Shown piece by piece: positions 5,600-43,442 of a DNA stretch of 43,526 bases. The translations under genes and the position numbers were made by a program. Position 1 is the stretch's first letter; each line of letters opens with the position of its first letter. The notes below the pieces were generated by a model, which was not told the DNA's origin, searched no databases, and saw nothing but the letters and a program-made list of their open reading frames with translations. This DNA is from Flexilinea sp. (GTDB taxonomy: Bacteria; Chloroflexota; Anaerolineae; Anaerolineales; Anaerolineaceae), in NCBI GenBank assembly GCA_026645735.1, contig JAPKMT010000027.1, positions 1 to 43,526 on the forward strand, given 5' to 3'.

Positions 5600-5684
5600 T
5601 AATTAATAGTATGAATTTAACTAAAAAATCAGCAAAAAATGGCTGGGTTTACTCCCGATATATTTTTTGAAAGTGAAAATCCTG

Positions 5685-26122: not shown

Positions 26123-26129
26123 AGTGCAA

Positions 26130-26972: not shown

Positions 26973-27822
26973 ATGCCAAACGTTCCTCAATTAATCAGAT
27001 CCGTCACCCAAAAGACAAAAGTTCAGCAGTACATCGTAGAAAAGGACTATGCATTAAGTTACCTTCTCGCTGCGATGAATTCCACAGATGGCCTGGGTGA
27101 TAACCTGGTTTTGAAAGGCGGTACGGCATTAAAGAAGCTCTATTTCGCGGAATACCGCTCTGGAATATTCTACGCGGGTAATGGGACCGATTAAGCAAAT
27201 TGATTCTCTGATGGAGACTGTTGTTCACTCCATGGATGAAATTTTAAATGAGCGCGGACCGTTTCAGGTTGGATTGGAACCGCTTCTGTTGAAACAACCT
27301 CATCCAGGCGATCAAAAAGCTTACCTGGTGCGAGTACAGTTCCCGGAGCAACGACAACTGTTATGCCGGCTCAAGGTGGAGATCACGGTGGACTAACCCA
27401 TTCTTAAACCGGTGGAAATTCATCCGGTTTTGCACGGGTTTGCTGAGGAGATTGATGTACGCATCCCGGTGTATTCTCTGACAGAAATCACCGCGGAGAA
27501 ATTACGAGCACTTTTACAGAGCAAAGCACGGTTGCAGGAACGCGGTTGGGGGGCTAGCAGAGTCTGCCGAGATTATTATGATTTGTGGAATTTGCTGCAA
27601 ATTCCCGATCTAAAATCGCCTGATTTAATTCCGCTTCTGAATCAGAAATGCGTTGTTAGAGATGTTTCATACACATCCCTTAACGACTTTATTTCCGAAG
27701 ATCTCTTAGCTGTTGCAAGTAATGAATGGGCACAACAGCTGTTGCCTTTTGTGCCAAATGCACCAGCGGCCGAGGAGCTTTTAAGTAATGTGAAATCATT
27801 AATCGTATCAATCTGGGAGTGA
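26973..27822 (+). pseudogene. abiEii: broken AbiEii toxin (nucleotidyltransferase)
   Basis: Three pieces in order make an AbiEii-like protein. Piece one (26973-27194) has the typical start YIVEKDYALSYLLAAM and LVLKGGTALKKLYFAEYR, but the next residues, where the nucleotide- and metal-binding S-x-D-x-D motif belongs, are replaced by unrelated sequence. Piece two resumes in another frame near 27181, and a TAA at 27394-27396 interrupts it in frame just after KVEITVD. Piece three (27397-27822) continues with EIDVRIPVYSLTEITAEKLRAL and CRDYYDLWNL, the usual C-terminal part. One local deletion or frameshift plus one nonsense change have thus disabled it. A functional toxin is not expected. Confidence 0.82.
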
Positions 27823-28005: not shown

Positions 28006-29559
28006 TTAGTGGGAAAAATACTTGGAAATAACTGGTTGGAATACATTAATGAATTTGGATGTCAGGTCAATCATTTGATCTTGTAATACGTCCCATTGAT
28101 CAAAATCATCGAAACCATACCCCTCAATAACAGATCTAATTCGACTAGCGCGCTTCGTTTCAAGTCTTTGCCAGTCAAGTGGTTTCCCAATAACTTTCTC
28201 AATGCTCTCTTTATAAAGATTGAGAAAATCAAAAAACTTCTTATTCTTGAGGATATCTCCTTGGTCGATATACAATTGTATTTCAGCATCATGTTGTCTT
28301 AAAACGATGCTATATGTAACGCCACTTTTACCTGTTGGAATATTAATCCAATTAAATGCGTTCGTAGATTTACTTGAATTAATGATTCCTTTTTGCTTCC
28401 CTTTTTCAATAAGCTGTTTCCAAAACACCATTCTGGGATTTGTTTTATCCTCTTTTCCGTTCTGATCCGTTTGTTGTATAGGTTGCCTTTGTGAAGAAAT
28501 TTCGACATTTCCTTTAAGGTAGGAAAACACCTTATAAATTGTGCAAAATGTATCTAGTTTTTCTTTACAGACAACACCATCAAGATCCAGCCAATAATAT
28601 GGTTCCTGATTTTCATCTTCCTTATAATGGATGATCTTAAGCCGGAGGCCGTCTGTGATGATTCCCCAGTCAATTTGATGAAATTTCGCAGCATAAAACA
28701 GATACGATTCCCATTTTAATCCGGGGGTAATTTCATCAAAGTTTTCACCTGGCTTTATGTAACAAACGATTGCTTTAGGAGTATGGTTAGTTCCCATGAG
28801 ATTCAAAGTCATGAGTCTTTGTTTTTTTTCATTCGTTGAAAAACCTAAGACATGAAAAATTTCATCCACATATTCCTTCCAAGAAGGTGAATCAGGATCC
28901 TGATAATCTCGATATTGTTTAATAGTTCGTAACGTGTTTGCAATTTCATCGAAAGACTCAAGTATTTGATAGTTTTCCAAACTGGGTTCCAAATATTTTT
29001 TTGCAAATCGTGTTGGCTTTGATATGTGTTTTTTGTCCTTTATTGCCCAAACACCTTTATCTACTCTTTGAAATAAATCATTTCCTTGGAACTTTTGTGT
29101 GTCTGATGAATTTTTGTAAATCGTATCTTGTATGATATTTTTCCAGTTTTTCGGCAAAGAAGCTTGCCTTAATTTTTTCATTTCAAAAAAGATTTGGCTA
29201 AAACTTCCTTTCCCGCCTAAATTTAAGAAAGCTTGCATAATGTCATTTAACCAGGTGCTAGAATCCTTAACTATCTGCTCATCAACACTTTGATGATTTG
29301 GATCCTCCATAAAGGGAAACTGGTTCTCAATGGATCGTAAAGCCCAGAAACCATTTCCCATTTTTTTAAATAAATCTTTTCCCCTAAATGCATCAGAGTC
29401 AGAGGAATAGGTTTCAATGACTCCTTGCATCGATTCAATTGCATGCAAAGGTAATGGCTCTTTTCTTATCCGCCGAACTTCTTCAAGGATATCTTTCCGA
29501 TGTGCCTGCCCACCTAAATTAGTTAAAGCCTGAGTAATATCTTCAACCCATGTTGCCAT
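28006..29559 (-). CDS. BREX-linked protein: two winged helices, PglX-N-like module, DUF4268
   Basis: A 517-residue protein from ATG 29559, chosen because AAAGGA lies 8 bases upstream and the BrxL stop is 5 bases before it. Residues 1-75 and 95-170 are two copies of a winged-helix (HARE/restriction-associated) domain: each has W-x-x-D-I, LGG, LP and SD(S/T)...F+G.DLF...G.WA. Residues about 195-355 resemble the N-terminal module of the PglX protein in this operon (YRDYQDPDSPSWKEYV, WGIITDG, PYYWLDLD), a type I R-subunit N-terminal-like fold. Residues about 385-510 match DUF4268 (FWKQLI, LYIDQGD, IEKVIGKPLDWQRL). It is probably a DNA-binding, nuclease-related accessory or effector. The nuclease residues are not certain. 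Confidence 0.7.
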   Translation of the reverse strand: MATWVEDITQALTNLGGQAHRKDILEEVRRIRKEPLPLHAIESMQGVIETYSSDSDAFRGKDLFKKMGNGFWALRSIENQFPFMEDPNHQSVDEQIVKDSSTWLNDIMQAFLNLGGKGSFSQIFFEMKKLRQASLPKNWKNIIQDTIYKNSSDTQKFQGNDLFQRVDKGVWAIKDKKHISKPTRFAKKYLEPSLENYQILESFDEIANTLRTIKQYRDYQDPDSPSWKEYVDEIFHVLGFSTNEKKQRLMTLNLMGTNHTPKAIVCYIKPGENFDEITPGLKWESYLFYAAKFHQIDWGIITDGLRLKIIHYKEDENQEPYYWLDLDGVVCKEKLDTFCTIYKVFSYLKGNVEISSQRQPIQQTDQNGKEDKTNPRMVFWKQLIEKGKQKGIINSSKSTNAFNWINIPTGKSGVTYSIVLRQHDAEIQLYIDQGDILKNKKFFDFLNLYKESIEKVIGKPLDWQRLETKRASRIRSVIEGYGFDDFDQWDVLQDQMIDLTSKFINVFQPVISKYFSH

Positions 29560-29563
29560 CCGT

Positions 29564-31639
29564 TTATTCCTTTGTGTATTGAAAAATAATATCTGTTTCC
29601 CGACATTTCCGTTTCGTCTGATCGATTTCACTTAATTCGAATTTTGATTCTGGTTTTTGAAAAATATCCAAACCACGTCCTGGATAAATGGACCATCCAT
29701 TATCTGTTTTGATACTCCGGTCATGAATTACTGGACTGAATTCATAACTAAAAAGAATTCCATGTTGAGCAAGATTGCTACTGATTTCTTTATATTTCTG
29801 TTCCTGAATTCTTTCTTGATAAGCATCGTCTGCTGATGTAATTAACTTGAGCTTTACTTCTCCAGAGTTGGTATCAAGAATGCTGGTAAATGCAATAAAA
29901 TTCCGAATTTGATAGTCCAACCGGACATAAGGATCAACGACATAGACTGCTTTGGCACCTTTCAGGTAAGGTCCAAACAAATTCTGGTAGCTGTAACCAG
30001 TCTCATCCTCTCGTATTTGAATGGTTTTTGCAGTCAATTCTGTCCCATTTTCTGGTTTAGATGCCGGCTCCTCTGTAGCGCCGAAGTATTGTAGAATCTC
30101 TGCTTCGTCTTCATCCGCAGGAACTGAGGCCGGCTCTGGTATAGGTTGAGATGCAGTTGGTACAGGTATTGAACTTGGATCGGAATAGCTTACAAGCCTG
30201 TGCCCTCTTTGGAAATCATCAGGTATTTTTGAGTTGAACGTGACCGGAACATATTCCCGGTCCAACTTGCATAATTCATCTCTCACGCGCTGACGTAATT
30301 CCAAAGCCGGATTTGCGCAATAACGGTAAAATTCTTCCTCGGTAGGGTCTTGATCCGGGAATAGAATTTTCAATAATCCAGTCGCTCCTGCCTCGACCGC
30401 CTTACTGTCACGCATATCATCACAATTCTGCAGCTCCATATTTGTTTTAACATAATCACGATAACTTATGTCACTGCGTAGGGAGTGCAAGATTTCACCG
30501 AATATATCCCCCTTGAGTCCGATCGTCTTGGAAGGAGTTTCCTTGCAGATCTTTGGTAAATCCCATCCAGGCAATAGTCCTGAGAACCTGTCAATGAAGG
30601 CGGTCTCGCGCAGGAAATTCGGAAAGACACGGAACAAACCCACCTGATCATTCAATGGCCGTTTATTTTGGTCCAAATCGATGTTCGCCAGCATTACCAG
30701 GCCAGCTTCGGCATTGATGGAACTGGCACTTCCACGAGCGAAACGGCCAGCTTCAAGATAGGATTTCAAAAGAGCAGTCAATTCCCCGGAGGCATCCGCT
30801 TTGACCTTTTGCGCTTCATCGATCACAACACTGTCATATCGGGTGATTAGTCCAGGAGTCTTCCGCGAATCATTAAAGAACAATACGGCTGGTGAAATTG
30901 CACCCGAGCGTAAGGCTACATATCGTGACATATTTTCAAAGACGAAACTTTTCCCTGTGTTTTTTGGAGCAAGTTCCACCAGGTTATAACGCGGCTCAAC
31001 CATTGGGATAAGGCGGCAAACCAATAATATTTTTTGCCTCTCACTATAGAGCTTGTAATTAAAACCCATCGAAGAGATCAGAAAATCAATCCATTCTTGG
31101 GTTGTAAAGCTCTTTCGGCATTCGCGGAAATATTCCAGATCCATGTTCGCCAATTGAAAAGGACGGAATTCACGCATCCATATTTGTCCGCGTGGGTTAT
31201 CGTCACTTTTTGGAACGTAGTAAAGCTTCCCCACTCCCCACAAACCGCTGCTTAAAAGCATTTCATTGTCTTGCACAATTTGAGGGATCGTAAAAGCGGC
31301 ATTCTCATCTAAGAATGGAATATTGAGGTATCGGTCGCCCTTTTCTAAATTAACATATACCGAAAAATTATCCAGAAATTGGACTTCCATTTGTTCAAAG
31401 AGCTGGTTCTTGATCGTTTCTTTTTGACTCTTATCGGGTACATACTTCTGAACAAAACCGGCGATTTTCTGGCGTGCCGTTTCCGTTAATTCAGTGTTAT
31501 CGTCTAGGTAATGAGAGATAATCCATTCCCGCACGTACGTAGGGATTGCCCTGCTGCCAAAACCGGCTTTATGTACAAAAGACTTGTTGATTACAATTTC
31601 GCTAAAAACGTCAATTGCCTTTTGTTCAAATGTTTCCAT
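29564..31639 (-). CDS. brxL: BREX protein BrxL with C-terminal MITD1-like domain
   Basis: A 691-residue AAA+ protein of the BrxL (Lon-like, TIGR02688) family. Walker A is A224-PKNTGKS and Walker B is YDSVVIDEAQ (D274, E275); the stretch LANIDLDQNKRP and the arginine-rich RETAFIDRFSGLLPGW follow as in BrxL. BrxL forms ring-shaped DNA-associated ATPases needed for BREX defence. After a Pro-rich linker (about 490-540), residues 546-691 do not look like the usual Lon-like protease part. They resemble the phospholipase-D-like C-terminal domain of MITD1: YSYQNLFGPYL, DPYVR, the QIRNF helix, IHDR near 639, NGW, GRGLDIFQKP and a final C-x-E-T. GGAGTGAGAG precedes the ATG. It lies 50 bases after PglZ. 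Confidence 0.82.
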   Translation of the reverse strand: METFEQKAIDVFSEIVINKSFVHKAGFGSRAIPTYVREWIISHYLDDNTELTETARQKIAGFVQKYVPDKSQKETIKNQLFEQMEVQFLDNFSVYVNLEKGDRYLNIPFLDENAAFTIPQIVQDNEMLLSSGLWGVGKLYYVPKSDDNPRGQIWMREFRPFQLANMDLEYFRECRKSFTTQEWIDFLISSMGFNYKLYSERQKILLVCRLIPMVEPRYNLVELAPKNTGKSFVFENMSRYVALRSGAISPAVLFFNDSRKTPGLITRYDSVVIDEAQKVKADASGELTALLKSYLEAGRFARGSASSINAEAGLVMLANIDLDQNKRPLNDQVGLFRVFPNFLRETAFIDRFSGLLPGWDLPKICKETPSKTIGLKGDIFGEILHSLRSDISYRDYVKTNMELQNCDDMRDSKAVEAGATGLLKILFPDQDPTEEEFYRYCANPALELRQRVRDELCKLDREYVPVTFNSKIPDDFQRGHRLVSYSDPSSIPVPTASQPIPEPASVPADEDEAEILQYFGATEEPASKPENGTELTAKTIQIREDETGYSYQNLFGPYLKGAKAVYVVDPYVRLDYQIRNFIAFTSILDTNSGEVKLKLITSADDAYQERIQEQKYKEISSNLAQHGILFSYEFSPVIHDRSIKTDNGWSIYPGRGLDIFQKPESKFELSEIDQTKRKCRETDIIFQYTKE

Positions 31640-31689
31640 CTCTCACTCCTTGGACAAGTTCTTCACCGATTGATGGGGAAGGCTTGATG

Positions 31690-34038
31690 TCAATCGTCAA
31701 ATACGCTTGTACTTTTCTCTTCAACCATCTTTTTCATCGTGATCTTGGGGAGCACATCAAAGGCGTGCTGCTCACCGTGTGCATGGTACCGGATCCGGAT
31801 GTGCAGATTGCTCTGTTCTTCAAGGATACTGGTCACTTTAAAACGCGCTTTGATCTGGATAGCCATATTCTTCTTGCCATTCAATAAAGCTATCCGGACA
31901 GGTTCGCTTTCTACATTTCCATTCAAAAGGCTGACCTGAATTTGATCCACTGCTGAATCATTGGGATTGCCGATTTCTAGTTCGACTGTTTCCATACGGT
32001 AACGGAATTCATTTTTCTTGAGAAGAACTGTTAAATCTTGGGTTAAGATGGTGGCCGGTTCAAAAACCAGATATGGAACAATGATCTCTTCGGGCAGCAG
32101 CCCGCCGTGAACGTAGAAATCCTTATCGGTGGGTAGAAATCGGTTACCACGCCTGGCGCACAACACATTTCCCGGATTCATAAAATCATTGGCAGGCAGG
32201 AAAAAGCAATCCAGTTTTAAATTATCTGCCAGCCCCGAAAAACGTTTACTGCTTACGGTCACATAACGATGAGAACGGGCTTCGAATCCATTTTTTTTAA
32301 AGAAAGCCGGATCCAGATCATTCTGCACAGTCGCAGGGATACGGGTTGAGCCATGATCAGAGACGACATGAATGCGAATATTTTCCTGTAAACCATGTTT
32401 TTCAATAAACGAAATCGTATTCTCAACCAGCTTTTCCAGCAAGTGAAAAATATGATCCTGGTGAGACATACCGATTTCATTTGCGGATTGATGCAGCGCT
32501 TTATCTATTGCCAGGTAATTCACCACATAGGAGGTTGCGTCGATCGCTTCGATCGCGCTCAAGCTGCCGATATCGCTGATATAGCGAAAAGCATTATCTT
32601 TGAAATAAGGCACCCACCCCTTTTCAATCATACCCTTGTAGGTCGTATCATCTATCGCCTGATACCCAACCGCTCCAGCTAACAAACATTTTTTGGAAAT
32701 CTCCGTTTCGCTGGGGAGCATCGCCAGATACGGCTCAGCGCCGGCCAGGACGTAGCCATGTTCTTGGAACAGATCGCGCAGCATTTCGGAGAATGTCCAA
32801 CCAAGGTTATCAATCACCAAAACCAGGTTGACAACACCATCACGCTTCAGATCTTTTGCTTTATTGGGGAGGATGTTGAAGACCATGCGTTTTGAATCGG
32901 CATGGATGTTATCCCAGTTTTTCATCAGCCACTCCGAAAAACGGTCGCCAATGGTAAACACGTCAGAGTCAAATTGTTCTTGACGATTACACCAGGCCTG
33001 ATAGGGCAGGTAGGATTCGGTCGCCCAGGAAAGCATCGTATCCACATCCCAGTTAAGATCTGGTGTTTGGGGCTTGGGTGGACGGATCAATCCGCGCAAC
33101 GTCGCAATTTTTCGGGCAAGCCAGCGAGACTGACCGCTGAACTTTTCCTCGATTTGAACCATCAGCTCCTGTGTGATCCAATCGGAATGATCTCGCAAGT
33201 GTTTTTCGATAGTTTCGAACTCCACTAAAAGCAATCCGCTCATCCGATCCAGCAAGGCGGTAAGGTCTTCCGCGCTCGTAGGTTGTATATTGTTCAGGAA
33301 ATAGGTCACCTGAAGAATAGTCTCTGGAATTTTGGATTCTTCAATTTTCAGATCTTCCAATTGCAGTTTGAGGATCCGAAATAGATCAAAAGCATCTCCT
33401 AACAATGCTTCACCTAAATCTAGGTACCTTTGCAGCACACGGAAACGCATGAGCTGCAATTTTAAAGCCGCCGGGTCCGCCGCAAACAATTCCTCCAACT
33501 GGCGTTGTTCGCTCGACCTAGCTTTGCTTTTCCACTCTTCTAAACGAGCGTAGAGTGTCCGCGCCAGCAAAGGAAATCCAAGGTTGGCTTTCCATTTCTG
33601 AGGATCTACAGTTTCCAATAAAGATGGTAATTTCGTGAAGGGGAATGTCATCGATGTTAGAATGGGGCCGTAATAATTAGCCAGCAAGGTGTCTTCAAAG
33701 GTAAAGCCTGGCTGGGGGTGAATGTCGAGTGATAACAGCCCGACCTGGATGATCTCCTCATTGGTCACGCTAGTGGGGATCTCCAGCTCCCAACGCTTGG
33801 CTAACACACCACGAGCGTCCACTGTATCAAATACAAAAGTGCCCTGCGGGTAGCGAATAGCCATATTCTTCAACCATTGAATGACCACTGACTGTGATAT
33901 GACCAAGGCATACTTCTGATCATTCTCGAACGCTTGTTGGATGTCTTTCACCCGCTGGGAAAATTCCGCGATGGAATTCATCTGGTCCACATCAATGCCA
34001 AACCCCAAATTATTCGGATCCTGCACAATCTTAATCAT
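31690..34038 (-). CDS. pglZ: BREX protein PglZ (alkaline-phosphatase-like domain)
   Basis: A 782-residue protein. The N-terminal third is helical and shared by PglZ proteins. The PglZ domain starts near residue 400 with NLVLVIDNLGWTFSEML (metal Asp), followed by LAMLPSETEISKKCLL where the nucleophile Ser/Thr is expected, and HVVSDHGSTRIP near 555 with the second metal-binding D and H. PglZ is present in all BREX systems and binds metal; its exact reaction in defence is unresolved. A beta-rich tail follows (about 690-770). The gene overlaps the end of the upstream gene by 8 bases and has GAGG-rich sequence before its ATG. Confidence 0.9.
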   Translation of the reverse strand: MIKIVQDPNNLGFGIDVDQMNSIAEFSQRVKDIQQAFENDQKYALVISQSVVIQWLKNMAIRYPQGTFVFDTVDARGVLAKRWELEIPTSVTNEEIIQVGLLSLDIHPQPGFTFEDTLLANYYGPILTSMTFPFTKLPSLLETVDPQKWKANLGFPLLARTLYARLEEWKSKARSSEQRQLEELFAADPAALKLQLMRFRVLQRYLDLGEALLGDAFDLFRILKLQLEDLKIEESKIPETILQVTYFLNNIQPTSAEDLTALLDRMSGLLLVEFETIEKHLRDHSDWITQELMVQIEEKFSGQSRWLARKIATLRGLIRPPKPQTPDLNWDVDTMLSWATESYLPYQAWCNRQEQFDSDVFTIGDRFSEWLMKNWDNIHADSKRMVFNILPNKAKDLKRDGVVNLVLVIDNLGWTFSEMLRDLFQEHGYVLAGAEPYLAMLPSETEISKKCLLAGAVGYQAIDDTTYKGMIEKGWVPYFKDNAFRYISDIGSLSAIEAIDATSYVVNYLAIDKALHQSANEIGMSHQDHIFHLLEKLVENTISFIEKHGLQENIRIHVVSDHGSTRIPATVQNDLDPAFFKKNGFEARSHRYVTVSSKRFSGLADNLKLDCFFLPANDFMNPGNVLCARRGNRFLPTDKDFYVHGGLLPEEIIVPYLVFEPATILTQDLTVLLKKNEFRYRMETVELEIGNPNDSAVDQIQVSLLNGNVESEPVRIALLNGKKNMAIQIKARFKVTSILEEQSNLHIRIRYHAHGEQHAFDVLPKITMKKMVEEKSTSVFDD

Positions 34039-34699
34039 GATTCCTCAACCTCGGATTCTGTCGTGCAAGCTGCAGGGAATTCACATGAGTTTGCATACTT
34101 GCTCTCACAGTGTCAATAAATTCTTCCTGCGTGCACCTTGAAGCGTGGTTAAATAGCTGCCTTCCTGTGCTGTCCCACTGCCCATGGTGCGCCTTTTGAG
34201 CCTGATATCTGGTAAAACGATCAAAAATAAAAGCCAGGATTTCATCCCACGGCAACTGCACCGCGGTGGGAAGGATTGCGTCATTTTTTCTCTCGCCCAC
34301 AGCGAATAATCTCACCCGATAGATGTCATCCTGATAATAGCCTACTTGGTAGAGCGCTTGGGCGACCTCAGATGCCCGATGCGAATCAAATGCGCCGACA
34401 GCATACAATACTCGCTGCATGTTTTCATCCTCAGGATTTGTCCAGGGTCCGTTCAGGCGGCATAAGCCATGTTTGATTTCCGCAAAGATGATGTCAATCT
34501 TTCCGTCTGAATTAAAAACAGGATGATCCGGCATGGGATCGCCAGAAGTCAACAACTCAGCGCGGTGCGGGAACCTCAACGCTAGCACATCTACGTCCGT
34601 GCGCTGCGAACCGCGCCGATCTGGGTGAACGACAAAGTTAGTGATGGTAGCACACCCGTTCAGACGGAAGAACCAGTAGGCAATCGTCTCGGGATTCAT
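34031..34699 (-). CDS. PD-(D/E)XK-like nuclease-fold protein within the BREX operon
   Basis: A 222-residue protein from ATG 34699, supported by AGAGGA five bases upstream and by position right behind the PglX stop. It begins MNPETIAYWFFRLNGC, then TNFVVHPDRRGSQRTDVDVLALRFPHR and later KIDIIFAEIKHGLCRLNGPW. D-x-D-V-L, then I-I-F-A-E-I-K, has the order and spacing of the D...E-x-K core of PD-(D/E)XK nucleases, so it may cut DNA. The C-terminal half is helical with an IFDRF motif. It is not one of the named Brx proteins I know. It overlaps PglZ by 8 bases, so it is clearly part of the operon. The fold assignment is by motif only. Confidence 0.6.
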   Translation of the reverse strand: MNPETIAYWFFRLNGCATITNFVVHPDRRGSQRTDVDVLALRFPHRAELLTSGDPMPDHPVFNSDGKIDIIFAEIKHGLCRLNGPWTNPEDENMQRVLYAVGAFDSHRASEVAQALYQVGYYQDDIYRVRLFAVGERKNDAILPTAVQLPWDEILAFIFDRFTRYQAQKAHHGQWDSTGRQLFNHASRCTQEEFIDTVRASMQTHVNSLQLARQNPRLRNHD

Positions 34700-34700
34700 T

Positions 34701-37700
34701 TCATTCCTCTTTTTCCTCATCAGTACGCCATGATAGATCGTACTCTTTTAGGAAGCGATTCTGCTCATCACTCAAACCGTAAATAGGGGCGATGAAGTCA
34801 TCTATTTTGTTTATTATTTCAATGCTTTTCCTAGGATAGAATTGTTGGTGTTCGGCACTTCCACCACCTCGATTCGACGTAATTATTTCGGAGTTATTTT
34901 TATAATCGCTCATCAATAATGAAACGAGCCTGTCAATTTCATTTCCTTTCTTTAGGAATTCATCATATCCCCTCAGCCCGAAGTTTTTAATTTGGTTCAT
35001 CTGAACATCAAATTGATTCGAGTTTGCGATCCAATAAAAATAAAAGATAGAAGAATTCAACAACAATAAAAATATGCTTTTATCTACCTCGGAGGAGAAG
35101 CTTACCTCTTTTAATTTTGTTGAGATTGTAGTGTTACCCCTCCTGAAATACGGAATAAAATCATAGGCTTTAATCCAATACAAAGCGGCAGAGTGATAAT
35201 AGGCGGAAACTGAGTTCATAGCATTTGGTTTCTTTAATAAATCGCCTAACTTGTCGGGCGACGCCAATATGTATTTATATGCTTCTGCTCCAACTTTGGT
35301 ATGAACCTTCGGGATGACACCCTCAGTAATGATCCCAATTTCCGTTGTTTCAGGGTAATGCACAACTTTTTCTTGGTCTTCTTTTTTCCAGTACCATAGT
35401 TTAGATGAATGGACAACACACTTACTATTTTCTTCCTTACTCAAACAATAAAATATCGTAATCCGTTGATTAACCCCATCAAATAATTTGTTAGGACGCA
35501 TCGAATAATGACTTGCATGTAAAGAGTGATAGTTTCTATATATTTCTTTTCTGATATTTTCAAAACTAGAGCCACAAGCGAAAGAGAGAGGAACAACGAA
35601 GCCAATATTCCCTTTCTGTTGATTTAACTCTATTGAGTTATCAATAAAATGGCCGAACAAATTGCCAGTACCAGCAGCAAGTCTATGTAGGAAAAACTCA
35701 TTCTCCTGGAAAGTATCATATGGTGGGTTGCATGTAATGCAACTAAAACCACCCTGAGATAGATAAACCTCAGGAAATTCTAGTTCCCAATGAAAATAGT
35801 CATTCGGGAAAATATATGACCTGGCAAGCTTTGCTTCCTTCTTTTGAACCATCATGGCATATTGCGATTCTTCCATGGTGTTACCAAAGTAAAGGCTTGT
35901 ATGTACATCACAAATGATCTTATAGTTTTCTAGTAGTCGATCAATTTCTTCTAACCATTCTTTCTTTTCCCTTACATCCTCCAGGCTCGCTGAAGCTTTT
36001 CCTGCTATTAAACGACTTTTTGATATAACCTTTTCCACCGCAGCTTTAAAATCTGGGTCCCGATCAAATAGATGAAGTTGCTGGATTTTCTTTTTGGTGG
36101 TTGAAAGTGGATAATTACCAATTTCTTCTAGTTTCGTGCCTACTAAGCTGTTACCACACTTAAGGTGGTGGTTCAGGAAGGAAAGGGGGTGGTTTTTTGC
36201 CATGGATAGGATCCACAGCGAGAGTTTGGCGAGTTCCACCGCGAGTGGGTTAAGGTCAACACCGTAGATACAATTTTCTACCACCCAGCGCCGCCAATAA
36301 CCTGTGCCAGTTTCCAGACTGCCTTGAATACCAATTTCATTCAGGATTTCAGTGGCGAAGTTGGAGATCAAATTGGTTGCGTTGACCAAAAAATGCCCGC
36401 TGCCCATGGCTGGGTCTAGCACGGATAGATTGAGGACTTTCTCGCGGACAAATTCCAACATGTTTTCTTCCAATAAATTACATAATGCCTTGCGCTCGTC
36501 TTCATCCACAGCTTGGTTATAAGCGCCAAGAGTTGGGCTCTGTTCTTGCAGAAAGGCGTCTTCCAATCCCTTGAGCTTCTCCCCCACCGTGTTATGTACA
36601 ATATAATTCACAATGTATTCAGGTGTGTAATAGGAGCCTGTGGATTTACGCTCGCTGGGGTCGCCGGCAAAATAGACGTCCCCCGCCTTGATATAATGCC
36701 CTACCACTTGCTTGCCGCCCTGCGAGGCTGGAATGAATTGGATCTTCCCCTTGGAAATCTTGACTTCTGTATCCTCTTTAGCAATGAACAATTTATGTTC
36801 CAGCAAACCTTCGTATAGTGTACCCAGGTGGCGTACGCTCATATCACGGTAACTGATCGGCTTTTCCTGGCCATTCCTTTCATGATATGTGGTCAGATTG
36901 AAGATGACATTTACCAGGTAAGAGTTACCAATTCGAGTATCCGAAAGGAAGCGGGTAAACTCACTTTCCTGCGGGCTGAAAAGACCGCCGTTATAGGTCT
37001 GGTCGATATCGACGAAGATGTGTTCCAGGTTATCCCAGATAGGGAATTTGAGATCGCTCGAACCTTTTCCATCATGTCGAGTGCGGCATTCGCCTTCCAC
37101 TTTCGACAACAAATCATGGTTTTCGTCGCTCATCAGTCGGCGCGCGTCTGCGTAAAATAAAAAGAGAAGCCGGAACATGTACAGCATGGCTCCGTGATAA
37201 ATTTTCTTGCGCAGCCCTTCATCATCCAGATTACCTTCCTTGCGACGACGTAGTTCATCCACATACCCCATGCAGAGATCTGAAAGAACACCCTTGCCGC
37301 CCTCCTCGCGCTGCTTGAGAGCGTTGGTGAGTTCTTTTTCTATGTAATCGATTTTGTCCTGGGATTCTTTCTTGAAACGGTCAAACTGACATTTGCCATC
37401 TTCATGGATAAAGAAGTTATCCGCCTTCATGAATTTGTGGAATATTTGATAGGCCTCTTTGGCTTTATCATCCAGGATCGCTTCCAAATCAATTTCCAGG
37501 TAGGTTTCGTATGGTGTGGGCTCATCCTGATGATAAATGCGCCAATGCCTGCCGTTGGTCAGTAGCCCCCATTGGAGATTGTTCTCGCGTAGTGCTCGAA
37601 TAATCTTTTCAGCCCAATTATGGCCAATGGTCGTGTTATCCAGGTTTTCTTCTGGCAGGATGACATAGCATAGTGAAAGAGGGGTTTCCTTGCCAACGCT

Positions 37701-37970
37701 CCCCATCGAGAACAAGTGTGTCAAATGATCACTCTCGGAAACGCCCCCCGATGAAGGAGTGGGGGTCGATTGGGCGAAAAATCCCAACGCTGAAAGCACC
37801 TCATGGACATAGGATTCTTTCCAGGCTTTCAAGTTATGGGTGTCGGCATACTCCCTGTATTCACCCAAGACTTTCAAAGAGGCTAAGACATCTGCATTCT
37901 CGGCCTGGCGAGTAATTTCTTCGAGGTAGATTTCAGAGAAGAGAATTTCGTTGTGATAGTAAGTTGGCAT
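34701..37970 (-). CDS. pglX: BREX adenine methyltransferase PglX
   Basis: A 1089-residue N6-adenine DNA methyltransferase. Residues 1-190 are an N-terminal module (EYREYADTHNLKAWKESYV, WGLLTNGRHWRIY). The catalytic domain has motif I LDPAMGSGHFL near 517-526, preceded by TGSYYTPEYIVNYIV, and motif IV CNPPYDTF near 742-747, both intact. The C-terminal 300 residues would hold target recognition (KEVSFSSEVDKSIFLLLLNSS is typical). In BREX it modifies host DNA at a non-palindromic site so that the system spares it. The ATG at 37970 has GAGGA upstream, 47 bases after BrxC. It looks complete and may be active. Confidence 0.92.
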   Translation of the reverse strand: MPTYYHNEILFSEIYLEEITRQAENADVLASLKVLGEYREYADTHNLKAWKESYVHEVLSALGFFAQSTPTPSSGGVSESDHLTHLFSMGSVGKETPLSLCYVILPEENLDNTTIGHNWAEKIIRALRENNLQWGLLTNGRHWRIYHQDEPTPYETYLEIDLEAILDDKAKEAYQIFHKFMKADNFFIHEDGKCQFDRFKKESQDKIDYIEKELTNALKQREEGGKGVLSDLCMGYVDELRRRKEGNLDDEGLRKKIYHGAMLYMFRLLFLFYADARRLMSDENHDLLSKVEGECRTRHDGKGSSDLKFPIWDNLEHIFVDIDQTYNGGLFSPQESEFTRFLSDTRIGNSYLVNVIFNLTTYHERNGQEKPISYRDMSVRHLGTLYEGLLEHKLFIAKEDTEVKISKGKIQFIPASQGGKQVVGHYIKAGDVYFAGDPSERKSTGSYYTPEYIVNYIVHNTVGEKLKGLEDAFLQEQSPTLGAYNQAVDEDERKALCNLLEENMLEFVREKVLNLSVLDPAMGSGHFLVNATNLISNFATEILNEIGIQGSLETGTGYWRRWVVENCIYGVDLNPLAVELAKLSLWILSMAKNHPLSFLNHHLKCGNSLVGTKLEEIGNYPLSTTKKKIQQLHLFDRDPDFKAAVEKVISKSRLIAGKASASLEDVREKKEWLEEIDRLLENYKIICDVHTSLYFGNTMEESQYAMMVQKKEAKLARSYIFPNDYFHWELEFPEVYLSQGGFSCITCNPPYDTFQENEFFLHRLAAGTGNLFGHFIDNSIELNQQKGNIGFVVPLSFACGSSFENIRKEIYRNYHSLHASHYSMRPNKLFDGVNQRITIFYCLSKEENSKCVVHSSKLWYWKKEDQEKVVHYPETTEIGIITEGVIPKVHTKVGAEAYKYILASPDKLGDLLKKPNAMNSVSAYYHSAALYWIKAYDFIPYFRRGNTTISTKLKEVSFSSEVDKSIFLLLLNSSIFYFYWIANSNQFDVQMNQIKNFGLRGYDEFLKKGNEIDRLVSLLMSDYKNNSEIITSNRGGGSAEHQQFYPRKSIEIINKIDDFIAPIYGLSDEQNRFLKEYDLSWRTDEEKEE

Positions 37971-38017
37971 ATCGTGTTGTCCTCAGTTGAATCCCTGCGC
38001 AGTTTTGTAAATATTAG

Positions 38018-41000
38018 TTATTTTTCGATTTCTTCTAGAGCATCCTGAATTACCTGGCGAAATTCGTTGTCTGAATAAAGACCAGACTCTGCTAATTCCG
38101 AAAGCAGGGATAAGATGGTAATCCTGGCTGATTCCTTATTCTTTGGGAAAACGAAGGTGATCATTTCATCAAAGGCTGTCTTTTGAGCTGGCCGAACGAT
38201 CTTAAACTTTTCAAGCTCATCAATAGCTTCGACAAGTTTCACTGCGCTGTAATTCCCCTTTTCATCCGCAACGACCAACTTGACTTTGCGATTGCCCTTG
38301 ATAATTAAAGTGTCTCCAGGAGTCAATTTTTGCCGTTGCTTGCTGGATGTGGGATCGGAACCATCATATGTGTAATAGATCACTCCTTCGCCATCCTCAG
38401 TGTCCGCGTGTAGCACGAGTTCACCCTGATAGGTAACCTGATTGCCGTGTTGGGATAGATCGTTTGTGAAATCCACTTTCAACTGGCTGATCTGTGGTGC
38501 ATTGGTCTCAATATGGTTCTTTCCACTTTGAATTCGTTGAACCATTGTCGGCACAAAATTAGACATCCAAGTGTCAACGCTCCCTAAGGAATAAGCCTCC
38601 GGTAATGTTTTAAATAACAACTCGCGGATGTTGGCATACGCTGTAAATTTCACTAAAGGCTTGCTGTCGTTATTATGGTAAGTACCGAAAGGATCTTTTT
38701 GGGTGCTGCTCAATCCGTTGTACCAGTTTTTGAACGTTTCCTGGATATCGACGTCAAGATGAGAAGGCGCTCCAAAGATTTCAGCTACCTGGACTAATAT
38801 CTGGTCCTCAACGCTGGCTTGAATGGCTTCTGCAGTAGCTTTGAAAGCCTTTAGGTGAACCTCGATATGTGTGATTTTTACCGATGTCAGGGTTTCGCCT
38901 GGTACTTGCCCAAGCATTTCCATCAGGTCGTACTTAATGAAGCGGAATGGATCTTTCGTTTTTGCCTGACTGAATATCTCTGCCAGAGATTTCTCATCTC
39001 CAGAATAGAAACCGAGTGAACGAGCAATGATAGGAAGGCTATCCCACCAATTGACTGCTGCTTGATACGCTTCACTAATCGTGTATACCTTTCCTGCAGG
39101 TGCTGGTTGGTTGGTGAAGATTTGGGAAATTTTGGCAAAATACGTCTGATCCTCAGCGCTCACTGGTTCAAAAATGATCACCGTGGAGGGATATTGACCC
39201 TGAACCAGGGCGTGCATATCGTCTGTACTTGTAAACTGAATATCTGTCAGGTTATTGGGCTCGCGTTTTAGTCGTAAGCTATCGCCATAAAACCTGCGGG
39301 CTAATAATAGGAACAAAGTTACTGCAATTTCACCTTGGCCGTACTCCTCAAAAAAAGGCTTGAGGAACTGCAGTAGATTTGCCTGTCCTTTTCCTTCAAG
39401 CGCAGTCAAATCTTCCAGAAGTTTGGCGTATGCCGGCAGAGCCGTCCGGAATTTATTAATATCTTTTTCAGCCTCTAAATAGCGGGTATCTCCCTCAACG
39501 GTTAATACACGTAGAGCCTGGTGATCTACAAAACATTTGCGAAGATATTTCGTTCCACCGCGGTTATCTGGCCAGGACCAATTCACCCGGATGGGCTGCG
39601 AGAAATCGCAAAGAATATCCCCGGCTTCTTTGAAAATGGCACGGACTTGACCGGATAAATTGATATGCGCCTTATTAAACTCGTTATGGCCAAAAGTATT
39701 GCGTTTACTTCCATAAAGCTCCTGGATCATCCTGTTCGCTGCATCATGGCGTTTGCTTTCTTGGACAGGAATCTCGACACCATTTATCCCAAACCAATAC
39801 ATTTTAGCATTGGAAAAATAGTCAGCTCTTGCATCGGTCAGTACTTTATTTGCCTCATCGCGGATCTTCTTCTCCTCCGCTTTTTCATAAGGGCTAAAAC
39901 TCTGGGATTGTTTTTTAAACCAGTCGCTTTCGAGTGCTTTGAGAGTAAAAATCGCATCGTAAACACTTATTGGATTGCGTGGAATAGCTACACTCACACG
40001 CGACTGATTATTCTGAGCAACGGTTTTTTTTGCAGAATCGATGTCGTTTTCATTTTCACAAAAGACATAGACAGCAACCCCTTCATATCCATTTGTCACC
40101 CCGGCTGTTTGCAGGCGTTCATGCTCAAGAGCAGTGAAGAAAGGTACAGAATTACCGTTCACACTTCTTTTCTCTGTGAGCATTGATGGAGTGACAAATT
40201 GAACTTTGAGCCGTTTATCTTCACTGAATGAGGCATTGTAATCTTTTGCTTCGAGGTAAACTTCATCTCCTCGGAGTGGACTTAGCTCTAAATAGTTTTG
40301 AAGCAGGTTGGTTGGACGGTTATCTGGATTGGTTTTAAATTGATCCACAAGCCGTTGAACATCTTTTCTGTCGCCACGCACTAATTCATACACCCCATGG
40401 TTGTTGAATAAAATTCCTGCTTCACATAATAACTTCAGGCGATCTTCTACCAGGGTCTTCTCATCAGGGGCAACAAACTCCAAAGCGAATTCAATATTCT
40501 GGACAGTATTAGCGATGGCCACATCCTGTGTACTGGCAATCTCGTTTACGAGCAATACCTTGATGATACGGAGCATCAGTTCATCTGCTTCTTCAAACAA
40601 CTGCTGCTGTGATTTTCGGGCTAAGTATGCATTTAATTCACGCAGAGTCGCTTCGTAATTGATGACGGCATTCTTTACACGGTCAACTAGACGACTATTG
40701 GTAGCTTTTAGGCTATCTTTGAAATAATCTACCAGTAAATCTGCAGTGTAAAGAGTTAGTTTGCTTTGATGTGCGATATCATTATTTTCAATGAACCAAG
40801 GATAAGAGTAGGGTTGTACATTCACCCATCCCTCTTCTCCAGTTTCAAATTCAGGAGCAAAAAACTTAAATACAGATCGGTTATCCGAACCAGCTTCGCC
40901 AGCAAGGCGCAGAAGAGCAAAGGTTGCCAGCGGGTGCATTGGATATATATTTTGTATGATGTTGTTTTTGATTTTTGGCGCTGGCAGCCAATTGAACAAA

Positions 41001-42133
41001 TGCAGCCGGTTGCACTCACTGGAGAACCAGGTAAATTTACTGGATTGAGATTGGATTTGCTGCATCCATTCAAGGGAATCTTTCTTTGGTTGAACAATCG
41101 CTGCAATAATATCTTCCATCCCTTGTGTTTGCAGGCCAATTTCAGAAACGCGAGCTTCTAAAGTCTCTGGATTCAGGTCTCCAATTTGTCCGTGATTTCG
41201 AAATGCTTTGTGCCCGGTGCCAATGAAAACAACCGTTCCACCTTTTTCAAGAGTGGAATTAGCGCAGTATTGAGCAAAATCAAGAAACGTTGTGTAATTT
41301 ACAAGGTTTGCGTCAATAGCAGCGCCAAATTCATCATAAAGAAAAACAATCCCTTTGTAGCGTTTCTTGAATTCAGGATTTTTTAGAAAATCAGAAATAA
41401 TGTCATGAAGGTTATCTTTCCTATATGAAAATTCCGAATCAGTGACTTTCCGGTAACAACTCTTAAATGCTTTCAGCGCTTGTTCATCATATTTTTTCAG
41501 ACCATCAATCAGATCATTGATAGTCCAATCCGGGAATAATCGACTGATCGCCAATTCAAGATCTGAGTAAAAACGCGTCTCGTTTCTTCGTGATTCCCAA
41601 TCTTTGATTCTTCGCAATGCTTCACGATAGTGGCTGTCCAAAAGGATATTCGATTCATCTTTCTGTAAAGCCTCTTCCAGCGCCCTTAATACTGCACCTT
41701 CAAAATCCAAGTTTAAATTATATCGACAAAGCGCCACCAGGAAACGTCCCGATTTGCGTGCTTCTTTCAGCGAAGCGGCTTTTCTTTCCTTAAGCATCTC
41801 TCCCGGTTTCAGGAGGACTTCGTTTTGGGCAGTTTCATAATTTCTAAAAAACGCTTCTATTTCAGGAAGATCACTTGGATTAGCAAAATAATTTGCCATC
41901 ATTAACAATAAATGAGATTTACCTGTGCCATAGCTGCCAGATAAAAAATAGAACCGACGATCCAATGGATTGAGTGCGTTCGCAATTTTTTCAAAGACCT
42001 GCCGATGAGCTGCGATGGGTTTGTATCGTTCCATCCTTCCGCGATTTTTTACAATATCGTAGTAATCTTCATATAGGTCGACGTAACTGGTGTAACCACT
42101 GTTTATTTGTACAATGTCACGAATCTTGGTCAT
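38018..42133 (-). CDS. brxC: BREX ATPase BrxC/PglY (DUF6079)
   Basis: A 1371-residue P-loop ATPase, the largest conserved BREX component. Walker A is G66-SYGTGKSH and Walker B is GIVFLYDEFGAAID near 262-272. The opening YTSYVDLYEDYYDIVKNRGR and the LNPLDRRFYFLSG block are typical of the PglY/BrxC group. Helical regions follow. Near residues 1230-1290 there is a beta-sandwich stretch with IYYTYDGSDPTSSKQ, which resembles the chitobiase/hexosaminidase C-terminal (CHB_HEX_C) repeat normally found in exported carbohydrate-active proteins. The last 80 residues form a helical tail. GGGAGC stands before the ATG, and the upstream gene ends 15 bases before it. Confidence 0.9.
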   Translation of the reverse strand: MTKIRDIVQINSGYTSYVDLYEDYYDIVKNRGRMERYKPIAAHRQVFEKIANALNPLDRRFYFLSGSYGTGKSHLLLMMANYFANPSDLPEIEAFFRNYETAQNEVLLKPGEMLKERKAASLKEARKSGRFLVALCRYNLNLDFEGAVLRALEEALQKDESNILLDSHYREALRRIKDWESRRNETRFYSDLELAISRLFPDWTINDLIDGLKKYDEQALKAFKSCYRKVTDSEFSYRKDNLHDIISDFLKNPEFKKRYKGIVFLYDEFGAAIDANLVNYTTFLDFAQYCANSTLEKGGTVVFIGTGHKAFRNHGQIGDLNPETLEARVSEIGLQTQGMEDIIAAIVQPKKDSLEWMQQIQSQSSKFTWFSSECNRLHLFNWLPAPKIKNNIIQNIYPMHPLATFALLRLAGEAGSDNRSVFKFFAPEFETGEEGWVNVQPYSYPWFIENNDIAHQSKLTLYTADLLVDYFKDSLKATNSRLVDRVKNAVINYEATLRELNAYLARKSQQQLFEEADELMLRIIKVLLVNEIASTQDVAIANTVQNIEFALEFVAPDEKTLVEDRLKLLCEAGILFNNHGVYELVRGDRKDVQRLVDQFKTNPDNRPTNLLQNYLELSPLRGDEVYLEAKDYNASFSEDKRLKVQFVTPSMLTEKRSVNGNSVPFFTALEHERLQTAGVTNGYEGVAVYVFCENENDIDSAKKTVAQNNQSRVSVAIPRNPISVYDAIFTLKALESDWFKKQSQSFSPYEKAEEKKIRDEANKVLTDARADYFSNAKMYWFGINGVEIPVQESKRHDAANRMIQELYGSKRNTFGHNEFNKAHINLSGQVRAIFKEAGDILCDFSQPIRVNWSWPDNRGGTKYLRKCFVDHQALRVLTVEGDTRYLEAEKDINKFRTALPAYAKLLEDLTALEGKGQANLLQFLKPFFEEYGQGEIAVTLFLLLARRFYGDSLRLKREPNNLTDIQFTSTDDMHALVQGQYPSTVIIFEPVSAEDQTYFAKISQIFTNQPAPAGKVYTISEAYQAAVNWWDSLPIIARSLGFYSGDEKSLAEIFSQAKTKDPFRFIKYDLMEMLGQVPGETLTSVKITHIEVHLKAFKATAEAIQASVEDQILVQVAEIFGAPSHLDVDIQETFKNWYNGLSSTQKDPFGTYHNNDSKPLVKFTAYANIRELLFKTLPEAYSLGSVDTWMSNFVPTMVQRIQSGKNHIETNAPQISQLKVDFTNDLSQHGNQVTYQGELVLHADTEDGEGVIYYTYDGSDPTSSKQRQKLTPGDTLIIKGNRKVKLVVADEKGNYSAVKLVEAIDELEKFKIVRPAQKTAFDEMITFVFPKNKESARITILSLLSELAESGLYSDNEFRQVIQDALEEIEK

Positions 42134-42148
42134 AGTAAAAAAGCTCCC

Positions 42149-42628
42149 TTATCCAACATCGTTGAAATCATTCAACCGGAATATGCGGCTTTGGCCTTGC
42201 GAATCAAGTATTTGTAATGACTCAATTTCTTGCGATGTTTGCAACACAACTACGAGTATAGATTTCATACCATCTTTGTAACTATCCCATTGATTGTTGA
42301 TAAATCTGAAAAAGTTCTGCCGTTCTGTTCTGCGCCAGGTATCCAGCAGAAAGTCAACACGATCAATCACAAGGATTGATTGGCCTTCACTCTGATCTAT
42401 TAACAGTCCTCTTAATTTTTCCGGACTAAAACTGTCGATATTCTCACTTAGATTTGGAGACTGGATAAAAAATTCCAATAAATCCAAATATTTGCCATCA
42501 GTTTGTTTACAAACCTTTTGACAAAAATGGGTCATAGATGGGCTTTTTTCTGGAACTGCATGGATAATTAAAGCCCGATATCGTTCTTGTTCCAAATGAC
42601 TTATGGCGGCAAATACACTAATTGGCAT
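42149..42628 (-). CDS. small BrxF-like P-loop-fold protein lacking Walker A
   Basis: A 159-residue protein from ATG 42628 (GAGG six bases upstream; ATG 42640 would add four residues but lacks a site). It has a RecA-like pattern: a first strand RALIIHAVPEKSPSMTHF where the P-loop should be, but no G-K-S/T; then a clear Walker-B-like strand SILVIDRVDFLLD, and a third strand SILVVVLQTSQEIESL. The final DSQGQSRIFRLNDF resembles the end of BREX-3 BrxF proteins, which are about this size and precede BrxC. The position just before brxC fits. ATP binding is doubtful. It overlaps the DUF4007 gene end by about 11 bases. Confidence 0.6.
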   Translation of the reverse strand: MPISVFAAISHLEQERYRALIIHAVPEKSPSMTHFCQKVCKQTDGKYLDLLEFFIQSPNLSENIDSFSPEKLRGLLIDQSEGQSILVIDRVDFLLDTWRRTERQNFFRFINNQWDSYKDGMKSILVVVLQTSQEIESLQILDSQGQSRIFRLNDFNDVG

Positions 42629-43442
42629 CATTCCCCTCATAAATCCGTTCTAATACAAATTCCTGCGTCAACGAATCAGATAAACGCACTTGATCGAGGT
42701 TGGCCAATTGTTCTAACCGAACTAAACCAGCGTTATGGAGGTCACCTAAGATCGATCGTACCTGGTATTCAGGTAAGTTTAAAACGCTGCCGGGACTGTT
42801 TTCTGCCAGGCATACATTCTCAATATTCACTGCTGTAGATCCCGGTGAATATTTATCTCGATAATAAAGTAAACAAAAAAGGAAAGCCAGATTTGGAATG
42901 TCGATTGGATTGGATTTCTTAAAATTGCCTTTTCCTTCTTCTTCAAGAATTCCCAACCGAGACAATTCACTACGTGAATATGCAGCTAATACAGCTCCAA
43001 TCTCTTTCGGTAATTTTTCGGAAATGGTTCTTTCCGAAAAATGAATGGCAAGATCTGAGAAATACTGGCTGCTTATTTGTTCGACTGAAAAATGATCCTG
43101 AGACGTGAGAACTTTATTAATAACACGATGCCAAACGACCCATTCCGGATTACTAGATACAACGAAGTGAATAATCCAAAGGGTTTCATTTTTATCGAAA
43201 AACGGATCAGATTGGATGACGACTTTCCCGAAAGGGGTAAGGGTAGTAACTCGTGATCGCACTAACCCAAATCCGGTCATCATACTGGTCAAGTTCTCAA
43301 CTTGTTTTTCGGGAATACCTAACGCTGAGACAATCTCCTGCCGTGATATTTTTTTCTTGTCTCCTTGGGTCAGGAGAAATTGAAGAATCCGTGATATATG
43401 GTCAAAACGAGGACGGTAACCATTTGTAAATTGAAGTTTCAT
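42618..43442 (-). CDS. DUF4007 family protein, first gene of the BREX operon
   Basis: A 274-residue protein of the DUF4007 family: a winged-helix start (SRQEIVSALGIPEKQVENLTSMM, then GLVRSRVTTLTPFGKVV), the middle TLWIIHFVVSSNPEWVVWHRVIN and a C-terminal second winged helix (about 200-260, PEYQVRSILGDLHNAGLVRL). DUF4007 proteins occur next to phosphorothioation (Dnd) and some BREX loci and may regulate or bind DNA; their function is not settled. No PAPS-reductase gene is visible upstream: the remaining 84 bases look non-coding. It is the likely first gene of the operon, with a weak ribosome site. Confidence 0.75.
   Translation of the reverse strand: MKLQFTNGYRPRFDHISRILQFLLTQGDKKKISRQEIVSALGIPEKQVENLTSMMTGFGLVRSRVTTLTPFGKVVIQSDPFFDKNETLWIIHFVVSSNPEWVVWHRVINKVLTSQDHFSVEQISSQYFSDLAIHFSERTISEKLPKEIGAVLAAYSRSELSRLGILEEEGKGNFKKSNPIDIPNLAFLFCLLYYRDKYSPGSTAVNIENVCLAENSPGSVLNLPEYQVRSILGDLHNAGLVRLEQLANLDQVRLSDSLTQEFVLERIYEGNDAN

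What the first reader, a model, noticed from the sequence alone, without database searches (positions are those of the whole stretch)
28006..43442. BREX-like operon whose gene set fits none of the six described types
The sequence shows eight tightly packed genes in one direction: DUF4007, a BrxF-like protein, BrxC/PglY, PglX, a PD-(D/E)XK-like protein, PglZ, BrxL, and a winged-helix/DUF4268 protein. As I know the classification, BrxF marks type 3, BrxL marks types 1 and 4, and DUF4007 has been seen with Dnd and some BREX loci; BrxA, BrxB, BrxP, BrxHI and BrxHII are absent. Two genes (34031-34699 and 28006-29559) look nuclease-related. This may be a new subtype that joins epigenetic BREX modification with its own cutting effectors.
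Basis: partly seen in the sequence, partly recalled or inferred. Interest (0 to 1): 0.85.

Follow-up and report, generated by a model that had tools for sequence, protein, structure and literature searches.

The report
Phage defence with swapped DNA-marking module
An eight-gene bacterial operon, predicted to be an anti-phage defence of the BREX family, joins a protein core seen in sulfur-marking BREX loci to a gene of the adenine-methyltransferase type and a separate predicted nuclease, a combination that matches none of the described BREX types we could check, so it would likely mark self DNA with a different chemistry.

Summary
Eight minus-strand genes (28006-43442; gaps -23 to +50 bases) form one operon: DUF4007 (A), a small STAND-like protein without a Walker A motif (B), a BrxC/SspC-like ATPase (C), an Eco57I/DrmMI-like N6-adenine methyltransferase (X), a PD-(D/E)XK-fold protein (N), PglZ, BrxL with a phospholipase-D-like end, and a winged-helix/DUF4268 protein (D). 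Relatives occur in Chloroflexota, Bacteroidota and on an Abditibacteriota plasmid. Of 22 related loci, none shows phosphorothioation genes; 12 show the methyltransferase, 7 are cut too early, 3 show none. The order A-B-C-PglZ-BrxL recurs in some phosphorothioate (Type 4) BREX loci; the window's genome also holds a separate Type 4 locus. My reading: a Type-4-like core with a methylation module in place of the sulfur module. Trees make the group one clade but do not prove the Type 4 kinship. N is an accessory (4 of 7 close loci) from a family without a Pfam, NCBIfam or PADLOC model that also occurs in DISARM, Hma and Type I loci. D and X carry a degenerate Type IIG nuclease domain. Nothing has been tested at the bench. 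New variant of a known kind.

The parts
42618..43442 (-). A: DUF4007 protein (SspB-like, proposed BrxA equivalent), 274 aa, first gene of the operon
   Evidence: Pfam DUF4007 86 bits, PADLOC SspB 67.6 bits
42149..42640 (-).
   Evidence: AAA_22 18.5 bits, below its cut-off of 27; alignment A7: four sister loci keep GK[ST], the four close-group rows do not
38018..42133 (-). C: BrxC/SspC-like P-loop ATPase, 1371 aa
   Evidence: PADLOC SspC 52 bits, BrxC 24 bits; one clade with relatives, support 100
34701..37970 (-). X: DrmMI/Type IIG-like N6-adenine methyltransferase, 1089 aa; DPAMGSGHF at 519, NPPY at 748; N-terminal degenerate nuclease domain; variable C-terminal half
   Evidence: Pfam Eco57I 74 bits; PADLOC DrmMI 254 bits; motifs and identity profile; N-terminus
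34031..34720 (-). N: PD-(D/E)XK-fold protein, 229 aa (or 222 from the next Met), predicted nuclease
   Evidence: 77-row alignment with invariant D44, E81, K83; AlphaFold pLDDT 93.7; structural matches
31690..34038 (-). [not shown]
29564..31639 (-). L: BrxL with C-terminal phospholipase-D-like (MIT_C/HKD-type) domain, 691 aa
   Evidence: TIGR02688 449 bits, MIT_C 143 bits
28006..29559 (-). D: two winged helices + degenerate Type IIG nuclease-like domain + DUF4268, 517 aa
   Evidence: Pfam DUF4268 92 bits; structure matches; E-x-K not conserved; family consensus starts at this Met

Best explanation
The operon encodes a predicted BREX-like defence whose DUF4007-B-BrxC-PglZ-BrxL core likely comes from the phosphorothioate (Type 4/SSP) branch, but whose DNA-marking enzyme is a DrmMI/Type IIG-like methyltransferase predicted to put N6-methyladenine on host DNA. 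Shown by sequence: the gene set, its recurrence, the lack of matched sulfur genes in these loci, intact methyltransferase motifs, intact PglZ catalytic residues, an intact PD-(D/E)XK motif in N, and divergence of X's C-terminal half between loci whose BrxC is 92-94% identical. Inferred: the C-terminal half of X reads the target site; C, with A and B, assembles X and PglZ on DNA, as proposed for BrxC in Type 1; methylated host sites are spared, and on unmarked phage DNA the complex would trigger PglZ nicking, the BrxL phospholipase-D-like domain and, where present, cutting by N. D would act as a DNA-binding adaptor that uses the same degenerate domain as X, not as a cutter.
Against: Trees do not settle kinship with the Type 4 branch: holding the group with Type 1 is rejected only for C (p 0.043), not for BrxL (0.064) or PglZ (0.43); holding it with the phosphorothioate locus L040 is not rejected either (C 0.28, BrxL 0.45), and neither is holding all phosphorothioate rows apart (0.054-0.43). 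Two or three Type 1 rows and no Type 2, 3 or BRC rows were in the trees. The close group's order A-B-C-X-Z-L equals the Type 1 order. Of 22 related loci, L004, L070 and L074 show no assigned methyltransferase although sequence reaches past its expected place, and L074 lacks A and B beside C. X is split in L006, PglZ and BrxL in L039. The group was collected by PglZ similarity, so its unity in the PglZ tree is partly by construction. The match of B to phosphorothioate loci rests on position and size; identity to the Thermomicrobium B is 14%. Five of the 8 genomes have 1-3 PAPS-reductase-family matches elsewhere, so sulfur chemistry in trans is not excluded there. No activity, methylation or defence has been measured.
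Confidence: 0.64

Rival explanations
1. An ordinary, far-diverged Type 1 BREX locus whose BrxA, BrxB and PglX are no longer recognised.
For: Gene roles are parallel (BrxA-like DUF4007, BrxB-like B, BrxC, MTase, PglZ, BrxL); the close group's order A-B-C-X-Z-L is the Type 1 order; a phospholipase-D-type BrxL is reported for Type 1 (PMC12839542, passages). The AU test does not exclude a clade with Type 1 for PglZ (p 0.43) or BrxL (0.064).
Against: DUF4007 is a Type 4/SSP/BRC component in that survey; C scores SspC above BrxC models; PglX models of Type 1 are far below cut-off and no Type 1 PglZ model matched; the sister loci put X first, X-A-B-C-Z-L; C with Type 1 is rejected at p 0.043.
Confidence: 0.16
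2. A system related to BRC (DUF4007, STAND, DUF6079, PglZ), in which BrxL and a methyltransferase take the place of the HerA/FtsK translocase.
For: BRC is described with the same four core families, and with a STAND protein that keeps its active motifs, as GK[ST] is kept in the sister loci here (PMC12839542 section 36).
Against: HerA/FtsK is universal in BRC and no such match was found among the eight genes; BRC is not described with BrxL or a methyltransferase. No BRC sequence was in hand to build a tree.
Confidence: 0.12
3. A Type IIG/DISARM-like cassette (X-N) inserted by chance into a phosphorothioate-type BREX locus that has lost its sulfur genes and no longer works as one system.
For: X and N are the most variable part of the close group; N homologues sit in other modification systems; X is split in L006.
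Against: An X-type enzyme is beside the core in loci of three phyla, in two different positions; reading frames in the window are open and partly overlapping over the whole operon; PglZ and C are highly conserved.
Confidence: 0.08

Closest known systems
Type 4 BREX (brxPCZL; phosphorothioation)
   Same: DUF4007, BrxC-like ATPase, PglZ and BrxL; in loci with separate DUF4007 also the order A-B-C-Z-L (L043, L044, L053; L040 with one extra ORF)
   Different: no PAPS reductase or cysteine desulfurase; a methyltransferase instead; BrxL carries a phospholipase-D-like domain; PglZ 40 bits against the Type 4 cut-off of 140
Type 1 BREX
   Same: six roles in parallel, the same relative order, an N6-adenine MTase; PglZ catalytic T and H align; BrxL with a phospholipase-D-like end is known there
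   Different: no BrxA (DUF1819) or BrxB (DUF1788) match, MTase is DrmMI/IIG-like, C is SspC-like; extra N and D
BRC (HerA/FtsK BREX-related capture system, PMC12839542)
   Same: DUF4007, STAND, BrxC/DUF6079-type ATPase, PglZ
   Different: no HerA/FtsK, GNAT or TGT match; has BrxL and an MTase
DISARM class 1 (DrmMI) and Hma/BR systems
   Same: X is closest to DrmMI models; an N homologue lies beside DrmMI in a DISARM locus (L015) and inside an Hma locus (L087)
   Different: no DrmA, DrmB, DrmD, HmaA or DUF499 protein in the window operon
Type IIG restriction enzymes (DrdV, BpuSI)
   Different: E-x-K pair not kept in D and X, so cutting is not expected from that domain

Membership tests
BREX superfamily | PglZ and a BrxC-type ATPase in one operon | tested here: met
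   PglZ with catalytic T445/H644; C matches SspC/BrxC models, weakly, and aligns in a tree with SspC and Type 4 BrxC
[quoted passage not shown]
   none among the eight genes; the genome's BrxP is on another contig in a separate locus
Type 4 BREX | DUF4007 component | tested here: met
   86 bits, cut-off 27
Type 4 BREX | PglZ of the Type 4 model | tested here: not met
   40.2 bits, cut-off 140
Type 4 BREX | BrxL without C-terminal extension | tested here: not met
   MIT_C phospholipase-D-like domain at 548-684; sister loci such as L046 and L068 do have short BrxL
Type 1 BREX | BrxA (DUF1819) and BrxB (DUF1788) | tested here: not met
   no such Pfam match in any of the eight
Type 1 BREX | PglX of Type 1 | tested here: not met
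   95 bits, cut-off 500
Type 3 BREX | BrxHII helicase and Type 3 PglZ | tested here: not met
   no helicase match among the genes; PglZ 44 bits against 250
Type 3 BREX | BrxF | tested here: inconclusive
   B has no PADLOC or NCBIfam match; not compared with Type 3 BrxF sequences
Types 2, 5, 6 BREX | PglW, BrxD, BrxHI/BrxHII, BrxE; PglX of these types | tested here: not met
   no such match among the eight genes; PglX models of types 2, 5, 6 at most 45 bits against 400-900
BRC system | HerA/FtsK translocase | tested here: not met
   no match
DISARM | DrmA helicase and DrmB | tested here: not met
   no match; found in L015 by the same library
PD-(D/E)XK nucleases (protein N) | fold plus D ... 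E-x-K motif | tested here: met
   [not shown]
PD-(D/E)XK nucleases (protein N) | DNA cleavage | not testable with these tools
   needs a biochemical assay
Any BREX | phage defence and site-specific self marking | not testable with these tools
   needs phage plating and methylome

The most novel reading that the evidence does not exclude
The DUF4007-STAND-BrxC-PglZ-BrxL machine is a modification-neutral chassis: the same core runs on phosphorothioate marks with BrxP/SspD and on adenine methylation with a DrmMI/IIG-type enzyme, and further accepts a plug-in nuclease (N) from a roving, so far unnamed PD-(D/E)XK family that also serves DISARM, Hma and Type I systems. The window locus would be a seventh BREX type of this kind.
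Probability: 0.43. Interest if true: 0.8.

Novelty: new variant of a known kind. Interest (0 to 1): 0.62.

Why it matters
How BREX couples a DNA mark to phage arrest is open. If one conserved core works with two unrelated chemistries, sulfur in the backbone or a methyl group on adenine, then the core is unlikely to read the chemistry itself, and the sensing would lie in the exchangeable module. Pairs of close loci that share a 92-94% identical BrxC but differ in the recognition half of X and in the presence of N make this testable by gene swaps in laboratory strains. The N family gives a predicted cutting enzyme for systems in which the effector has been debated.

Tried and rejected
Sequence profile of D against solved structures: nothing meaningful; the link to DrdV/BpuSI rests on fold and, for X, on D-X sequence similarity. 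BrxF identity of B: no library match; Type 3 sequences were not fetched. Contig-length coincidence between homologue lists as a linkage measure: dropped as uninformative. N as a general DISARM component: the DISARM N found no plasmid match, so the DISARM link rests on one locus. Foldseek itself gave no match at E 0.001 or better for N or D. A missing upstream gene: the contig ends there; Pelolinea shows none by eye, Leptolinea has an unknown 293-aa ORF there, not followed. Rfam and tRNA scans of the window were empty. Literature searches listed no paper whose title or abstract describes this gene set. Seen: PMC12839542 abstract, sections 12, 28, 34, 36, 40, part 1 of section 35, and passages; passages only of PMC12205998, PMC12707154, PMC11931770, PMC9716671, PMC9142583 and PMC12458937; other papers only as listings. 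The library holds open-licence papers only; the founding BREX paper and the Type 4 phosphorothioation paper are not held; supplements were not readable. That FokI, BspD6I, R2 and HamA are PD-(D/E)XK enzymes is recalled, not from a call.
Full report
What is in the window. The window is contig C19 of an assembly of 86 contigs; a relative list gives 43,526 as the length of the contig that carries the window's PglZ, so it is the whole contig. At its right end eight minus-strand genes lie head to tail, with gaps of -23, 15, 47, -20, -8, 50 and 4 bases. I call them A (DUF4007), B (small STAND-like), C (BrxC/SspC-like), X (methyltransferase), N (PD-(D/E)XK fold), Z (PglZ), L (BrxL) and D (winged helix/DUF4268).

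Family tests. A matches DUF4007 at 86 bits and SspB at 68. C has no Pfam AAA or DUF6079 match at E 0.1 and scores SspC 52 and BrxC 24 bits; in the relatives L037 and L046 SspC models also lead, with 99.5 and 108.9 bits. X has the Eco57I methylase domain, the motifs DPAMGSGHF and NPPY, and PADLOC's DrmMI as best model (254 bits; best PglX 69); PglX models of NCBIfam reach 95 bits or less against cut-offs of 400-900. Z lies below the Pfam cut-off, but T445 and H644 align with T538 and H741 of an E. coli plasmid Type 1 PglZ, and T and H stand there in 23 of 23 rows; T538 and H741 are the numbers of the residues mutated in E. fergusonii PglZ in the work on its nuclease activity (PMC12205998, passages). 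L passes the BrxL equivalog cut-off and ends in a phospholipase-D-like domain, a type reported for Type 1 BrxL while Type 4 BrxL is said to lack any C-terminal extension (PMC12839542, passages).

Relatives. A scan of species genomes with the PglZ alignment gave 7 loci. Genome searches with PglZ gave 18 of 301 genomes in the order at E 0.001 or better, 7 of which hold loci of this group and 11 other PglZ; 2 of 247 in the phylum of L008, Bacteroidota, L008's own genome included; and 7 of 298 in the class, own genome included, at E 1e-20. A plasmid search added an Abditibacteriota plasmid. I treat 22 loci as the group: the window, L002-L008 and L019 (close group, 9 loci) and L037, L038, L039, L046, L057, L068-L075 (13 loci); L036 repeats L005 and L020 repeats L007. 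Annotation by phmmer against window, Type 4, DISARM and, in part, Type 1 references is. All of A, B, C, Z and L are intact in 10 of 22 (window, L003, L005, L006, L037, L046, L057, L068, L070, L075). An X-type methyltransferase is seen, whole or in part, in 12 of 22 (window, L002, L003, L005, L006, L007, L037, L039, L046, L057, L068, L075/L076). Seven of 22 are cut by contig ends before the place where X would be (L008, L019, L038, L069, L071, L072, L073). Three of 22 show no assigned methyltransferase: L004 has an unassigned 390-residue frame there, L070 and L074 have unassigned fragments of 125 and 118 residues, and L074 also lacks A and B beside C. A PAPS reductase or cysteine desulfurase was matched in 0 of 22, while the same references ring in L040, L043, L044, L045, L052 and L053. 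Tested whole for the PAPS reductase family, 3 of 8 genomes with a locus of the group (those of L002, Pelolinea and Leptolinea) have none; the other 5 have 1-3 matches elsewhere, in the window's genome BrxP of its separate Type 4 locus.

Kinship of the core. The order A-B-C-Z-L is also that of phosphorothioate loci L043 and L044, of L040 with one extra 263-residue ORF between C and Z, and of a Thermomicrobium roseum plasmid, where it follows an SspBCD-type set and ends in a cysteine desulfurase. The window's own genome has a second, ordinary Type 4 locus on contig C60: BrxP 827 bits, BrxC 1157, PglZ 426, BrxL 735, desulfurase 461. In trees the group is one clade for C (13 rows, 100) and PglZ (14 rows, 97), BrxL (8 rows, 92/95) and DUF4007 (7 rows, 97). 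The rows were found through PglZ, so that tree is partly circular; the phosphorothioate row L041 was so labelled by likeness, without a matched sulfur gene. Whether the nearest outside kin are phosphorothioate loci is not settled: forcing the group together with Type 1 costs little for PglZ (p 0.43) and BrxL (p 0.064) and is rejected only for C (p 0.043); holding all phosphorothioate rows apart from the group is not rejected either (0.43, 0.064, 0.054). The case for a Type-4-like core therefore rests on DUF4007, SspC-like C and gene order more than on trees.

The methyltransferase as specificity part. Against Pelolinea and Leptolinea, X is 56-98% identical per 50-residue block up to about residue 650, then 12-50%, while C is 94% and 92% identical. 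This is the pattern expected of exchanged target-recognition regions. In L005, L007 and L004, where N is absent, the part of X next to PglZ is unlike the window's or not recognised; but Pelolinea, which has N, also differs there (14-46%), so that X and N travel together is only a suggestion.

Mechanism. As in the best explanation: likely X marks adenines at a site read by its C-terminal half; A, B and C likely scaffold X and PglZ on DNA; unmarked DNA would trigger PglZ, the BrxL phospholipase-D-like domain and N. Parallel facts from Type 1 (BrxB-PglZ complex, PglZ as metal-dependent nuclease, defence only partly lost without that activity) are from PMC12205998 (passages) and PMC12839542 (section 40). 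None of this has been measured here.

Novelty. The 2026 survey (PMC12839542) resolves the six BREX types into four groups and adds three BR systems and BRC; in the passages of its main text that name DUF4007 it occurs in Type 4 and BRC, not with a methyltransferase. In it 406 of 457 Type 4 taxa have the PAPS reductase, so loci like this one could hide among the 51 without, or among the unassigned hits that were discarded. Its supplements were not readable to me, so the gene set could be listed there without a name.

Noticed in passing
L011 (G000 contig C60), 393-15950: The same genome carries a Type 4 BREX locus (desulfurase, BrxL, PglZ, BrxC, BrxP) next to a 1370-residue protein without any PADLOC match.
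   Followed up: partly
window 26124-26972 and 27412-27822, + strand: AbiEi-like antitoxin and a short AbiEii-like frame (profile positions 127-236 of 238 only), a possibly broken toxin-antitoxin pair just downstream of the operon.
   Followed up: no
window 5667-8600, + strand: A single 977-residue protein joins a subtilase domain (221-500) and a sortase domain (840-973), which looks unusual to me.
   Followed up: no
L015 1084-10544: A DISARM class 1 locus with an N-type nuclease between DrmMI and DrmA, followed by a short argonaute, a HEPN partner and a weak CARF match.
   Followed up: partly
L075 14907-17216: A 769-residue protein without Pfam match sits between DUF4007 and B in one locus.
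   Followed up: no
L039 (genome G407): A genome that carries a window-type locus also holds a sister-type locus in which PglZ and BrxL are each split into two frames.
   Followed up: no
L053: Thermomicrobium roseum plasmid: a DUF4007-SspC-like-PAPS reductase set and a DUF4007-BrxC-PglZ-BrxL-desulfurase set in tandem, beside Type III-B CRISPR genes.
   Followed up: no
L088 5948-6715: The one N homologue outside a recognised modification system in the order sample has lost the lysine of E-x-K.
   Followed up: partly
L005 190-1071: In Leptolinea a 293-residue ORF of unknown kind overlaps the start of the DUF4007 gene by four bases.
   Followed up: no
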